Assembly (NCBI GenBank): GCA_903866825.1
Contig: CAIPPE010000022.1
Span: 1 to 32,498 of the forward strand
Direction: 5' to 3'
DNA length: 32,498 bases
Source: an uncultured Methylococcaceae bacterium
GTDB lineage: Bacteria > Pseudomonadota > Gammaproteobacteria > Methylococcales > Methylomonadaceae
Positions 7,700-32,498 of this stretch are shown here, piece after piece. The stretch's first letter is position 1, and each line of letters begins with the position of its first letter. The notes beneath the pieces were generated by a model. The model did not search any database, was not told where the DNA came from, and saw only the letters and a list, made by a program, of their open reading frames with translations. The translations under genes and the position numbers were made by a program.

Positions 7700-9805
7700 T
7701 TAAGTTTTACGTTTCACTTCTATTATATTGGGTGCACAGCTTATTTTATTAAGAATTTGACTTAATTGATTAGTATCCACAACCTGAATGGTTAAGTTTA
7801 AGGTCGCTGAAAAATCAGGGTGAGTATCAAGGGCCGCGTTATAGATATGAATTTTAGCCTGCGCAAGGATTTGAGATACATTGTTCAGTAAGTTTTCGGC
7901 ACTAAAGGCTTGAACAATAATCGGTACAGCATGGCTGGCTTTTTTATCTCCCCAAGACACTGAGATGAGTTGGGGCTTTTTTTCTATAGGCAGTTGAGTG
8001 ATATTTTTACAATCTAGCCGGTGGATAGTAATGCCGCTATGATGAGAAATATAGCCAATAATGTCATCGCCTACGACGGGAGAACAGCAGTGAGCCAACG
8101 TCGTATGGACGTTATCAATGCCTGCCACAGAAATCATCGATTTAAACGACGGTTCCTTCTGTCTAGCATTCGGTACATTCTCAAGTTCAGGAACCTTTAG
8201 ATAGCCCGCAATCTGCCGGTTATTAATATCACTACGCCCAATGGCTTCAAGTAATGCGTCAGTAGTGGGTTGCTTAAAATGGCTTAGCATATCGACCCAG
8301 TTCAGGGTTTTTATGCCTAAGCGCTTACTTTCTTTCTCTAAAAGTAGTTTTCCCCTGGCAATGTTTTCAATTTGTTGTTGATTACGAAACCAGTTTTTTA
8401 CTTTGGTAATGGCCCGCGATGTTTTTAAATAGCCAAGATTGGGGTCTATCCAGTTATGGTTAGGAGCGCTTTCTTTAGTCGTTAATATTTCTATTTGTTC
8501 ACCTGATTTAAGCGAGTAGGTCAATGGGACAATTCTGCCATTCACTTTTGCGCCCCGACAGCGATGACCAATTTCTGTATGAACGGCGTAAGCAAAATCC
8601 AGCGGTGTTGAACCTTTGACTAAATCGATCAGTTTACCCGCTGGCGTTAAGACATAAACCCGATCGTTAAATAGTTCACTACGAAAGTTTTCGCTTAATA
8701 CGTCGTCTATGTTTTTTTGGGCCAGTAATTTTCGTAAGCTGGCCACGCCTTTTTCAATAGCGGCAGATTGTCTGCCACCTTCTTTATAGGCCCAATGTGC
8801 GGCAACACCAAGTTCCGCATAATCGTGCATTTGTCGAGTACGAATTTGTACTTCGATACGATTGCCTTGAGGATCTAAGATGACAGTATGCAGTGATTGA
8901 TAGCCATTTTCTTTGGGATTCGCTATATAGTCGTCAAATTCTTTAGGGATATACTGCCAAACGCTGTGCACAATTCCCAAGGCGGTATAGCATTGCGTTA
9001 AATTATCGACAATAACCCGCACCGCTAACAAGTCGTAGAGCTCGTTGAAGTCTAATTGCTTGTGCTGCATTTTTCGCCAGATGCTATAAATGTGCTTGGG
9101 GCGTCCATAGCAAGTGCCATTTATATTTTCACTGCTTAAGTGTTGCTGTAAAAGCTCAACAAAACTATTTATACAGTTTTCCCGTTGCACTCGATTGTTG
9201 GCTAGAGACTTTGCGATACCTCGATAAGCTTGAGGCTCTAAATACCGGAAAGCCATATCTTCAAGTTCCCATTTGAACTGATGAACACCCAGTCGATTGG
9301 CAATCGGGGCATAGATATCCAGTGTTTCTTGCGAGATGAAGTGTCTCAATTCATAGGTTTCTTTAGCTAAGTTCCGTAAGCGATGGAGGCGGTAAGCCAG
9401 TTTAATTAATACGGCCCTAACATCCTGAGTCATTGATAAAAGCATACGACGTAATGTCTCAGCTTCATTCGGCTTTTTCGTCATGTCCTTAGAATAAACC
9501 GTTAAATTGTTCAACCAGTTCACATCTTTAACAATGGCCGCGATAGTTTCACCAAATAAGGCTTTAATATCAGGCTGGGGGTTTAATTGGCCTAGACGAG
9601 GATCGCTTAAGATCGCAGCAATAAGGGTTTTGTTGTCAACCTTATAAGTTTTTAAAATGGCGGCAACCTCAGTGCCTTTAGGTCGATAATAATGCGGATC
9701 ATCTGGAATGCGACCAATAATTTCTAAGGCAAGATCAAGTTCACTAGTTTCACTATCTGAAAAGTAGCTAGAAAGTGGTTGAGAGGGATCTGTGGTCTTA
9801 TGCAT
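7700..9805 (-). CDS. relA: (p)ppGpp synthetase RelA (monofunctional type)
   Basis: A 701-residue long RSH protein. The pseudo-hydrolase domain (about 20-175) has lost the HD metal site: where SpoT and Rel have HDxxED this protein reads SDPRLG (67-72). The synthetase domain (about 235-345) carries EFDD at 289-292, the acidic EXDD motif of monofunctional RelA rather than the RXKD of bifunctional enzymes. A TGS domain (about 382-440), a helical region, a zinc-finger-like part with HCC (572-574) and Cys599, and a C-terminal ACT domain (about 626-700) follow. It should bind stalled ribosomes and make (p)ppGpp from ATP and GTP/GDP. A separate SpoT-like hydrolase is expected elsewhere in the genome. 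Its promoter is seen at 9889-9916. Confidence 0.93.
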   Translation of the reverse strand: MHKTTDPSQPLSSYFSDSETSELDLALEIIGRIPDDPHYYRPKGTEVAAILKTYKVDNKTLIAAILSDPRLGQLNPQPDIKALFGETIAAIVKDVNWLNNLTVYSKDMTKKPNEAETLRRMLLSMTQDVRAVLIKLAYRLHRLRNLAKETYELRHFISQETLDIYAPIANRLGVHQFKWELEDMAFRYLEPQAYRGIAKSLANNRVQRENCINSFVELLQQHLSSENINGTCYGRPKHIYSIWRKMQHKQLDFNELYDLLAVRVIVDNLTQCYTALGIVHSVWQYIPKEFDDYIANPKENGYQSLHTVILDPQGNRIEVQIRTRQMHDYAELGVAAHWAYKEGGRQSAAIEKGVASLRKLLAQKNIDDVLSENFRSELFNDRVYVLTPAGKLIDLVKGSTPLDFAYAVHTEIGHRCRGAKVNGRIVPLTYSLKSGEQIEILTTKESAPNHNWIDPNLGYLKTSRAITKVKNWFRNQQQIENIARGKLLLEKESKRLGIKTLNWVDMLSHFKQPTTDALLEAIGRSDINNRQIAGYLKVPELENVPNARQKEPSFKSMISVAGIDNVHTTLAHCCSPVVGDDIIGYISHHSGITIHRLDCKNITQLPIEKKPQLISVSWGDKKASHAVPIIVQAFSAENLLNNVSQILAQAKIHIYNAALDTHPDFSATLNLTIQVVDTNQLSQILNKISCAPNIIEVKRKT

Positions 9806-9888
9806 TGAGGTGAGGGTGGAAGATGAGATAAACCGAATAATTATGGGTTAGATTAGCAGAAATCAACCCTTAATATCAGAGTAGACGC

Positions 9889-9916
9889 ATTATAAAGTTC
9901 AGTCTAACTAAATCAA
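9889..9916 (-). promoter_or_regulatory. Sigma70-type promoter of relA-polA
   Basis: On the minus strand TTGATT (9916-9911) and a perfect TATAAT (9894-9889) are separated by 16 bases. Transcription would begin near 9882, giving a leader of about 75 bases before the relA ATG. The tandem array begins about 80 bases upstream of this promoter. Confidence 0.6.
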
Positions 9917-9995
9917 TGTGTTAGGTGATAATCATTTGTCCGTATAAAAAATGCATAAGAATGGCGCAATCAATCATTACCCTACAGTTTTCGTA

Positions 9996-10394
9996 GTCTT
10001 GTCTGTCGTATTTAGATGTTTGGATGTAGCAAACATCTCCATGTTTACGTTAAACAGAACCTTGTTTGTTACATTCTTAATCTCTTTTAGAGTAAACATG
10101 ATCTTGTTTGCTACAAACAAGTATTCTTTTGCTCTAAAAATGGTTCTGTTTACTCCGAAAGTCTTTCTTTTTAGCGCATTCAAGGTTCTGTTTGCGACAA
10201 AAGGAAGTCTGTTTAGAGTAAACATGATCTTGTTTGTAGCAAACAAGTATCCTTTTGCTCTAAAAGTGGTTCTGTTTACTCTGGAAGTCTTTCCTTTTAG
10301 AGCATTCTGGGTCTTGTTTAGAGCAAGCTAGTCCTTGTTTGTTAGGTTTAAGTATTGATCTACTACAACCCCGATCTTGTTTGCCGCACTCTTG
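9996..10394 (+). repeat. Array of nineteen 21-bp tandem units with internal dyad symmetry
   Basis: The 399 bases divide exactly into 19 units of 21 bp with no insertion or deletion. The common pattern is YTGTTT at unit positions 4-9, a variable five-base centre (10-14), and AAA at 15-17, so most units are palindromic around position 12. The clearest is CTTGTTTGTAGCAAACAAG within 10227-10247. Units differ from each other but keep phase. A higher-order period of six units (126 bp) is visible: 10101-10184 and 10227-10310 differ at 11 of 84 positions by my count. No unique spacers exist, so it is not CRISPR. The array lies between the divergent relA and purC genes. Long open frames across it on both strands are a by-product of 21 being a multiple of three. 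Confidence 0.92.
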
Positions 10395-10574
10395 ATAACG
10401 CGTGTATTAATTTACAAGCATTTCGCTTTCAAGAATAATGTTAAAATCGCTTCAGCAATAACGATGTCACTGAAGAAATGGACTGTAAGTAGACTAACTA
10501 GCGTTAAATCTATTCGATACAGTTAATTCTTTATCAACAAATCGTTTCAAATTTTAAAACCTTTGCGAGGAATT
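10395..10574 (+). promoter_or_regulatory. Leader and candidate promoter region of purC
   Basis: This stretch lies between the array and the purC start. A candidate promoter is TTTACA (10411-10416) with AATAAT (10434-10439) 17 bases on; a TGTTAAAAT extended -10-like word at 10439-10447 is an alternative. A 6-bp stem CTTCAG (10450-10455) / CTGAAG (10470-10475) would fall in the leader. No PurR-type operator was recognised. The region 9806-9995 on the other side of the array holds only the relA promoter and nothing else I can name. Confidence 0.3.
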
Positions 10575-11471
10575 ATGACTACGCCGGCCGCTTTATATCA
10601 ATCAACACTGACTTCTTTAAAACTAAGGGCGCGTGGAAAAGTAAGAGATATCTATGATATTGATGATAACACCATGTTGATAGTGGCAACCGATAGGCTT
10701 TCTGCGTTCGATGTTATTTTACCCGATCCAATTCCGGGTAAAGGCCGCGTATTAACACGCATATCAAACTTCTGGTTTAAGACCTTGGGTCACATCATGC
10801 CTAATCATTTGACCGATATCAGTTTACAAACTGTTTTACCTGATGAGTCTGAACGTAATCAGGTTGAAGGTCGCTCGGTGATTGTCAGAAAATTAAAACC
10901 CTTACCGGTTGAAGCTATCGTACGGGGTTATTTGATAGGTTCCGGCTGGAAAGATTATCTAAAATCAGGTGAGGTATGTGGTATTAAATTACCGTCTGGC
11001 TTGCAACAGGCGCAACAATTACCCGAAGCAATTTATACTCCCTCAACAAAAGCGGCGATGGATCAGCATGATGAAAATGTATCGTTTGAAGCCACGGTTG
11101 CTTTGATGGGAAAAGACCTGGCAGAGCAAGTGCGTGACGCCAGCTTAAAGATCTATCAGGAAGCCGCCGCCTATGCAAAGGAGCGCGGTATTATTATTGC
11201 CGATACGAAGTTTGAATTTGGAGTGGATGATGAAGGCACTTTATATCTGATTGATGAAGTGTTAACACCGGATTCCTCAAGGTTCTGGCCGGCTGATCAA
11301 TATCAGGTTGGAGTCAGTCCGCCCAGCTTTGATAAACAGTATATTCGTGATTATCTGGAGACACTTAATTGGAATAAAACAGCACCCGGTCCGCTATTGC
11401 CTGCTGAAGTGACAGAGTTTTGTGCAAAAAAATATCACGAAGCAGAGGTCCGGTTAGTTGGAGAGGTATGA
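10575..11471 (+). CDS. purC: Phosphoribosylaminoimidazole-succinocarboxamide synthase
   Basis: A 298-residue SAICAR synthetase that condenses CAIR with aspartate using ATP in purine biosynthesis. Family sequences are clear: RGKVRDIYD near the N terminus (glycine-rich ATP loop), [32 protein letters not shown] and the [10 protein letters not shown] block. It is the roughly 300-residue form that includes the DNWNK-like region and a longer C terminus. The open frame extends upstream to a TTG at 10563, but the GCGAGGAA Shine-Dalgarno lies inside that extension and points to the ATG at 10575. It stands alone, between the tandem array and the atp operon promoter. Confidence 0.95.
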
Positions 11472-32216: not shown

Positions 32217-32290
32217 TGTTATACTTAATCGTGTTTATTGAATGATGCGTCATTTTACCAGCAACATACTATTTCATGGCTTTTTCTTAT

Positions 32291-32498
32291 TGCTTCCGTT
32301 ACGTAAGCAATAGTGATCGTTACGTTTCTAACTGCTTACGTTACGTAATCAATTGTGATCGTTACGTTTCTAACTGCTTACGTTACGTAAATAATTGTGA
32401 TCGTTACGTTTCTAATTACTTACGTTACGTAAATAATTGTGATCGTTACGTTTCTAATTACTTACGTTACGTAATCAATTGTGATCGTTACGTTTCTA
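32291..32498. repeat. Tandem array of 42-bp units, each two 21-bp half-units, cut by the window edge
   Basis: Five successive copies start at 32291, 32333, 32375, 32417 and 32459; the last is cut after 40 bases by the window end. Each 42-bp copy is two 21-bp halves that share the core CGTTACGT at the same phase (unit positions 7-14) and agree at 12 of 21 positions in copy 2. The first half is palindromic around TTACGT-T-ACGTAA; copy 1 shows the longest dyad, TGCTTCCGTTACGTAAGCA. The second half carries TGATCGTTACG, giving one GATC per 42 bp. Copies differ by a few substitutions only and there are no unique spacers. The array lies upstream of queF. Confidence 0.92.

What the first reader, a model, noticed from the sequence alone, without database searches (positions are those of the whole stretch)
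9996..10394. Nineteen phased 21-bp palindromic units between divergent relA and purC
The sequence divides exactly into 21-bp units without any indel, although units have diverged widely in sequence. Keeping phase while losing identity is unlike a young slippage repeat and suggests selection on spacing: 21 bp is two helical turns, so all dyad centres face the same side of the DNA. It sits between the relA promoter and the purC promoter region. A binding platform for a dimeric DNA-binding protein, or a structural element for chromosome organisation, is an inference; no known iteron or operator family is recognised.
Basis: partly seen in the sequence, partly recalled or inferred. Interest (0 to 1): 0.65.

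Follow-up and report, generated by a model that had tools for sequence, protein, structure and literature searches.

The report
Gene-linked 21-bp palindrome arrays
A run of about nineteen 21-base palindrome-like units between two housekeeping genes of a methane-eating bacterium belongs to a large class of such arrays, many of them sitting in front of copies of an undescribed gene family, which suggests an unknown DNA-organising or gene-control system.

Summary
The array is real: lag-21 identity 0.476 against 0.280 in shuffles (z 8.8), with dyad-symmetric units. It is one of many. The window's genome, from a methanotroph MAG lineage, carries intergenic arrays of mostly unrelated sequence sharing a period near two helical turns (20-23 bp): 10 of 14 non-coding arrays in a 460-kb sample.

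The main result goes beyond the finding. Such arrays lie upstream of members of a multicopy protein family (~204-212 aa; novel helical N-domain, Fn3 C-domain): 41 of 43 testable gene loci, against 4 of 30 purC control loci, those four being this same array. Unit length broadly follows protein clade, while unit sequence is nearly always unrelated below 70% protein identity. 26 of 39 arrays are significantly dyad-symmetric, without clear G-U bias.

Best reading: tandem sites for a symmetric dimer, probably the cis-encoded protein. This array is a solitary member, kept upstream of purC in four species; in one of them relA is not nearby. The gene-array pairing is shown. DNA binding and any effect on relA or purC are inferred. 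No known system tested fits, and seven literature searches listed no description.

The parts
9996..10394 (.). Array 1: 19 phased 21-bp units, computed consensus TTTTTGTTTGCTGCAAACATG, dyad-symmetric; 126-bp higher-order repeat
7700..9805 (-). relA (RelA/SpoT family: HD_4, RelA_SpoT, TGS, ACT_4 domains), transcribed away from the array
9889..9916 (-). sigma-70-like promoter match upstream of relA (TTGATT-16-TATAAT); a consensus match only
   Evidence: 3 matches found in the region vs mean 2.3 in shuffles, so not significant by itself
10411..10439 (+). sigma-70-like promoter match upstream of purC (TTTACA-17-AATAAT), just past the array; a consensus match only
   Evidence: same caveat
10575..11471 (+). 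purC (SAICAR synthetase); the mechanical ORF begins at TTG 10563, likely ATG at 10575 (read by eye)
9951..10331 (+). ORF of 126 aa through the array; judged non-coding because its frame is shorter in three orthologues
32283..32498 (.). Array 2: unrelated 21/42-bp array (GTTACGTAAC-type dyads) cut by the contig end; 94% identical array in G012:C34, relatives in G000:C202, G012:C161 and C82

Best explanation
The array is a solitary member of a family of gene-array modules. A full module has an array of roughly 10-30 head-to-tail units of 20-22 bp (two helical turns), usually ending 130-250 bp before a gene for a ~204-212-aa protein with a novel helical N-domain and an Fn3 C-domain; a promoter-like CTATACT lies in that gap in some loci. 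SHOWN: periodicity, dyad symmetry of most tested consensus units, gene linkage, unit length broadly following protein clade, unit sequence diverging faster than the protein in most pairs, occurrence in two families of the order, and the purC-upstream copy in four species. INFERRED: a homodimer, most simply the cis-encoded protein, occupies one dyad per unit, so that neighbours line up on one face of the DNA and polymerise into a nucleoprotein segment; this would control the module's own promoter and, at solitary arrays such as the one upstream of purC, act in trans on nearby promoters or on chromosome organisation. The confidence below is for 'tandem dimer sites recognised by the linked protein family'. 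The gene-array pairing alone I put at about 0.95.
For: Gene linkage: 41 of 43 essentially full-length gene loci with at least 330 bp of upstream sequence carry an array (several loci are orthologues of each other), against 4 of 30 purC control loci, those four being the orthologous array. Background: 10 arrays in 460,224 bases, about one per 46 kb. Periods: 31 arrays binned at 21, 5 at 22, 5 at 20-20.5, largely grouped by protein clade. Array similarity: 5 of 5 pairs at >=90% protein identity, 3 of 6 at 80-90%, 2 of 7 at 70-80%, 1 of 802 below 70%; same period in 46 of 47 pairs at 60-70%. Dyads: 26 of 39 at p<0.05, Fisher p 2e-37. No clear G-U bias: 604 G/T vs 570 A/C mismatches, 0.514 vs control 0.487. 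Some solitary arrays share unit family with gene-linked ones; two carry adjacent gene remnants.
Against: No known DNA-binding domain: no Pfam family is matched by more than 1 of 31 N-domains at E<=0.1, and the N-domain's best PDB fold hit has E 0.81. Most proteins are near neutral (pI 5.1-9.7, mostly 5-8). 13 of 39 arrays are not significantly dyad-symmetric. Proteins 84% identical can have unrelated arrays (L227/L241, L252/L260), odd for a sequence-specific binder. A second protein family (P0001/P0002), unrelated by profile comparison, has arrays upstream in 2 of the 3 unbroken cases held. Only 2 of 10 arrays in the G000 sample are next to the first family. This array has no gene remnant nearby.
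Confidence: 0.5

Rival explanations
1. RNA system: the array is transcribed into tandem short hairpins or about 21-nt units that are bound or processed by the linked protein, as in type III toxin-antitoxin or TIGR loci.
For: Arrays precede the gene in most loci; many fold stably as RNA (median z about -2 on both strands over 34 arrays); period following protein clade would fit a processing ruler.
Against: Stability is similar on both strands and absent in several arrays; the G-U excess among dyad mismatches is only about 2 standard errors; a promoter-like CTATACT lies between array and gene in 7 of 26 loci; no Rfam match near a gathering score for this array.
Confidence: 0.2
2. The arrays are sites for other regulators or nucleoid proteins, and the Fn3-protein genes are merely clients.
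For: The proteins lack a recognisable DNA-binding domain and are mostly neutral; arrays also precede a second protein family and stand alone.
Against: Each paralogue would need its own regulator, since unit sequences are unrelated; unit length broadly follows the protein's clade.
Confidence: 0.15
3. Mobile or satellite-like DNA: gene-array modules duplicate and arrays expand by slippage, with no cellular role.
For: Dispersed copies with nearly gapless similarity over 400-460 bp; gene remnants beside two arrays; 21- and 42-bp indels; fast array turnover in several pairs.
Against: Slippage alone does not explain why unrelated sequences share a 20-22-bp period and dyad symmetry; the purC-upstream arrays are more conserved than purC four-fold sites, though the purC leader is conserved as well.
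Confidence: 0.12
4. Curved-DNA element acting by shape alone.
For: This array and its gene-linked relatives are predicted strongly curved (1.65 vs 1.09 in column-permuted controls, z 8.2; L219 z 7.8, L220 z 11.3).
Against: Only 8 of 31 arrays exceed z 1.64 and the median z is -0.3.
Confidence: 0.03

Closest known systems
ParR-parC centromeres of type II (ParMRC) plasmid partition
   Same: Tandem repeats upstream of a gene, bound cooperatively by dimers; pSK41 uses 20-bp repeats; ParR proteins bind cognate but not non-cognate parC families (PMC9426499, passages read).
   Different: No ParM or ribbon-helix-helix gene recurs beside the modules (no third gene in 3 or more loci within 1.5 kb); tens of copies per chromosome; no match on 72,556 plasmid records with two queries.
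Iteron arrays of Rep-type plasmids (recalled, no call)
   Same: Direct repeats spaced about two helical turns beside the gene for the binding protein (from memory).
   Different: The linked protein matches no Rep family in Pfam, PHROGs or NCBIfam for four members scanned; chromosomal MAG contigs; more units.
TIGR-Tas
   Same: Array beside a single gene, upstream or downstream; some clades have palindromic parts.
   Different: TIGR: two alternating 8-12-nt repeats with 9-nt spacers, 36-nt RNAs, Nop-domain protein (PMC12045711, passages). Here 20-22-bp units, no regular spacers, no Nop match.
Type III toxin-antitoxin loci (recalled, no call)
   Same: Tandem-repeat array upstream of a gene for a ~200-aa protein (from memory).
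   Different: Different unit length and protein fold (helical plus Fn3); no clear strand-specific RNA signal.
Intergenic heptamer and other prokaryotic tandem repeats
   Same: Intergenic tandem arrays of unknown function (PMC6344855, passages).
   Different: Longer, helically phased units tied to a gene family.

Membership tests
ParMRC partition (parC) | adjacent ParM-like and ParR (RHH) genes | tested here: not met
   No recurrent gene in 3 or more loci within 1.5 kb of the modules; four linked proteins have no Pfam match above cut-off
ParMRC partition (parC) | dimer binding to tandem sites | not testable with these tools
   Dyad symmetry is compatible; no binding data
Iteron-Rep replicons | Rep initiator gene beside the array | tested here: not met
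   Four linked proteins scanned, no Rep match
TIGR-Tas | Nop-domain protein | tested here: not met
   No Nop match in Pfam at E<=0.01 for 4 family members or at 0.1 for 31 N-domains
TIGR-Tas | 36-nt unit with alternating repeats and 9-nt spacers | tested here: not met
   Units 20-22 bp
CRISPR | identical repeats separated by unique spacers | tested here: not met
   Continuous diverged units; a true CRISPR of 60-bp period in the same genome looks different (L113)
Type III toxin-antitoxin | RNA antitoxin repeats transcribed and processed by the toxin | tested here: inconclusive
   No clear G-U bias; similar strand stability; no expression data
Known RNA families (Rfam 15) | match at gathering score | tested here: not met
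   Window 9400-11000 only: best of 4 weak matches 25 bits against a 117-bit gathering score
Coding repeat | open frame conserved in orthologues | tested here: not met
   Longest open stretch in the frame is 115 codons here, 78 in G200, G012 and G217

The most novel reading that the evidence does not exclude
Some methanotroph chromosomes carry tens of orthogonal protein-DNA addresses: an expanded family of dimeric Fn3-domain proteins of a new DNA-binding fold, each with its own helically phased array next to its gene and solitary copies elsewhere (for example upstream of purC) that it binds in trans to build nucleoprotein segments controlling genes or chromosome folding. The protein fixes the unit length while the sequence specificity turns over quickly.
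Probability: 0.3. Interest if true: 0.9.

Novelty: categorically new. Interest (0 to 1): 0.75.

Why it matters
If the arrays are dimer platforms with private proteins, one bacterium holds tens of naturally orthogonal array-protein pairs of an undescribed fold, useful for studying how specificity evolves and as DNA-tethering tools. It would also place the promoter region of purC, and here relA (stringent response), in methane consumers next to an unknown regulatory element. Even if the arrays prove selfish, a two-turn period shared by unrelated sequences would need a new explanation.

Tried and rejected
Rejected: decayed coding repeat (frame not conserved). Rejected as a general cause: intrinsic curvature (8 of 31 arrays), although this particular array is predicted to be strongly curved. 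A local dyad score on single sequences gave a weak signal (median z 0.5 over 34 arrays); the consensus-level test replaced it because units are diverged, and both are reported. Four-fold identities for G217 and G182 were wrong (stop codons dropped in the alignment) and were redone for G217. I first called the array 'relA-purC' in all four species; one search showed that relA is not within 7.8 kb of it in G012, and in G200 and G217 it was not seen in the short flank held.

Led nowhere: Rfam; PHROGs, NCBIfam and PADLOC for linked proteins (one PHROG of unknown function at E 0.0004 for one of four members, and two NCBIfam matches far below cut-off); fold search of the N-domain (none at E<=0.001); plasmids and phages; viral contigs (one search failed for lack of conserved stretches). 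The pattern hits in viral contigs showed no 21-bp array. One exact hit in an Omnitrophota MAG (L032) has no array. Differences between same-array and different-array protein pairs gave no clear specificity region. Nearness of arrays to defence or toxin-antitoxin genes was noticed but not tested against a background.

Literature: nine searches. One search targeted TIGR-Tas and ParR/parC; the other seven looked for such arrays or the protein family, and their listings (capped at 8-20 rows, of up to 1,525 papers) showed none. Only open-licence papers are held.

Full report
THE OBSERVATION. Window 9996-10394 holds 19 in-phase 21-bp units: lag-21 identity 0.476 against 0.280 in shuffles (z 8.8), mean pairwise unit identity 0.49. 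Longer multiples (42 to 126) also stand out. The consensus is dyad-symmetric. In this genome the array lies between a RelA/SpoT-family gene and purC, with a promoter-like match on each side; such matches are no more frequent than in shuffles (3 vs 2.3). A 126-aa frame through it is not kept in orthologues.

ORTHOLOGUES OF THIS ARRAY. Among 35 genus members, purC was found in 32 and 30 loci were cut. Three besides G000 carry the array upstream of purC: G200, G012 and G217. In G012 relA is not found in the 7.8 kb beyond the array; in G200 and G217 the flank held is too short to tell. So the array is kept with purC, not demonstrably with relA. Nine loci show relA and no array, with 156-354-bp intergenic regions (L079-L082, L084, L085, L089, L092, L098); in the other 17, relA was not in the flank held and no array was seen. 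In G012 and G200 an antitoxin-like and an acetyltransferase-like gene lie between array and purC (in G012 TacA1 and GNAT matches). Pairwise array identity is 0.83-0.95, while purC four-fold sites are 0.57-0.86 identical. The purC leader is 0.90-0.95 identical, so the whole intergenic region is conserved and local recombination is not excluded. Indels: a 1-bp gap in one unit in the other three relative to G000, and a 42-bp insertion in G200.

A GENOME-WIDE CLASS. A unit pattern (one mismatch allowed) hit 4 of 201 genomes of the family, all in the genus. In a sample of 60 G000 contigs (460,224 bases; at most the first 20 kb of each), a scan over all lags 8-120 found 14 arrays outside long ORFs (ORF filters 150 and 100 aa). 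Ten have a period near two helical turns: L107, L116, L121, L122, L145, L153, L154, L185 and L195 at 20.5-22, L117 at 23; L195 was seen first at lag 63 and at 21. The other four are a CRISPR (L113), an AT-rich stretch (L138) and two that look coding by eye (L105, L111). Unit sequences are mostly unrelated. Other samples: G012 1 of 1 non-coding array near two turns (168 kb); G006 4 of 5, one of them weak (185 kb); G154 0 of 1 (255 kb); G171 0 of 2 (200 kb). Scaled up, G000 would hold about 90 arrays (inference).

LINK TO A GENE FAMILY. Flanks of unrelated arrays held paralogues of one protein. Its profile finds 25 matches in G000, 24 in G012, 16 in G006, 20 in G008 and 13 in G002, fragments included, in 9 of 21 relatives; 31 of 301 genomes of the order, in 2 genera; and no genome but G000 in a sample of 398 from the phylum. 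Of 60 gene loci cut (best-scoring matches, several orthologous), 43 have an essentially full-length gene and at least 330 bp upstream; 41 of these have an array whose lags are multiples of about 20-22 (27 of 28, 14 of 15). L239 and L244 were hidden by the ORF filter and count, which looked only at lags 18-23 and 39-43. The misses are L229 and L253, both with weak period-21 signals; L231 and L233 count as hits but are weak. Ten loci have less than 250 bp upstream, two are gene fragments without an array, and five short fragments were not scanned. Arrays lie within about 700 bp upstream, usually ending 130-250 bp before the gene. Three loci of one clade (L237, L238, L240) have a 20-bp-period array downstream; L238 also has a 21-bp signal upstream. 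Control: 4 of 30 purC loci, all this same array (the window's own copy was hidden there by the ORF filter and is known); two others had arrays at unrelated lags.

PERIOD FOLLOWS PROTEIN, SEQUENCE DOES NOT. Estimated periods, binned to half bases, are 21 in 31 arrays, 22 in 5, 20-20.5 in 5, plus one spurious 16.5. That estimator looked only for arrays with lags near multiples of 19-23, but searches used all lags. On the protein tree four of the 22-bp arrays fall in one subclade of the f4 (second taxonomic family) proteins and the fifth (L254) on its own f4 branch; the f4 subclade of L252, L253, L260 and L271 has 21; two 20-bp downstream arrays fall in one clade and the 20.25-20.5 pair together; L246 (20.25, weak) and L247 (20.75) depart from their neighbours. 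Arrays are similar in 5 of 5 protein pairs at >=90% identity, 3 of 6 at 80-90%, 2 of 7 at 70-80% and 1 of 802 below.

DYADS, NOT CLEARLY RNA, NOT CURVATURE. By column permutation 26 of 39 arrays are dyad-symmetric at p<0.05 and 22 at p<0.01. Six near-duplicates and arrays with weak or non-integer periods were left out first; the set includes solitary arrays, and several boundaries were set by eye. In arrays with a clear dyad, mismatched pairs are 604 G/T and 570 A/C (0.514 vs control 0.487, about 2 standard errors). Folding energies are similar on both strands. Curvature exceeds permuted controls in 8 of 31 arrays, strongly here (1.65 vs 1.09).

THE PROTEIN. AlphaFold2 (pLDDT 88.6, pTM 0.52) gives N-terminal helices and a C-terminal beta domain. 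The profile matches Fn3 domains in the PDB (best E 1.4e-17) and Foldseek agrees. The N-domain alone (pLDDT 89.4, pTM 0.79) has no convincing PDB match (best E 0.81) and no Pfam family matched by more than one of 31 members. Most members are near neutral. CTATACT occurs in the last 200 bp before the gene in 7 of 26 loci, and no third gene recurs in 3 or more loci within the flanks held.

A SECOND FAMILY. The array in L122 lies upstream (-684 to -221) of a 233-aa protein, P0001, unrelated to the first family by profile comparison; a homologue, P0002 (27% identity), has one in L195 (-472 to -221); L108 shows no clear array, and the L193 copy is broken and has none. P0001 relatives number 18 in G000, occur in the same 9 of 21 relatives and in 53 of 301 genomes of the order, in 7 genera. 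This family is therefore broader than the first and occurs in G154, where no non-coding 21-bp array was seen in the sample.

SOLITARY ARRAYS. The window array, the C148 array and several G012, G006 and G011 arrays share unit family with the gene-linked C90 type. Of 29 loci with arrays not linked to the first family, two (L035, L037) carry adjacent remnants of its gene, so some solitary arrays may be leftovers of modules. None was found beside the window array. Array 2 of the window is weakly related (E 2e-5) to the array upstream of the family gene at G000:C314. Eight further arrays of the G000 sample (two of them linked to the second family) had no relative among the first-family-linked arrays held.

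HOW IT MOST LIKELY WORKS. Repeats with dyads every two turns present the same face of the helix to a row of dimers. Since unit length broadly follows the protein's clade, the linked protein is the simplest candidate binder; rapid change of unit sequence would mean evolving specificity. An array in front of the module's gene suggests self-regulation, and a solitary copy upstream of purC suggests action in trans. None of these steps was tested, and the lack of a known DNA-binding domain and the arrays next to a second family are the main reasons for caution.

VERDICT. The ordinary explanations tested (coding repeat, CRISPR, known RNA, curvature alone) do not fit; a selfish or satellite-like origin is not excluded. 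ParR-parC and iterons resemble it in working principle, but their defining genes were not found. I file it as a new kind of gene-array module, with the mechanism open.

Noticed in passing
window 32283-32498: Second 21/42-bp array of unrelated sequence (GTTACGTAAC dyads) at the contig end beside queF; in G012 the 94% identical array lies between the queF-like gene and an upstream 288-aa gene (L022).
   Followed up: partly
L012 6935-7722 (G012) and L076 upstream of purC (G200): A TacA-like antitoxin plus GNAT gene pair sits between array and purC in two species and not in G000 or G217; G012 also has a DUF4160 gene on the other side.
   Followed up: partly
L014, L031, L038, L017, L036, L009, L020: Several arrays lie near CRISPR-ancillary (Csm6/Csx1-like, STIV_B116-like in L014) or GmrSD-like restriction genes (L009), others by eye; enrichment not tested.
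   Followed up: no
L122 2303-3001, L195 9952-10641, L108 5184-5831: Second multicopy protein family (18 matches in G000) with upstream arrays in two of three unbroken cases held; no Pfam or NCBIfam match for P0001 and P0002.
   Followed up: partly
L154 9483-10256, L015 5677-6606: A pentapeptide-repeat gene (L154) and a gene with a similar N-terminus (L015, by eye) lie beside two arrays of different families.
   Followed up: no
L113 6227-7126: Typical CRISPR array, period 60, in the same genome.
   Followed up: no
window 9996-10394: This array and its gene-linked relatives are predicted to be strongly curved, unlike most other arrays.
   Followed up: partly
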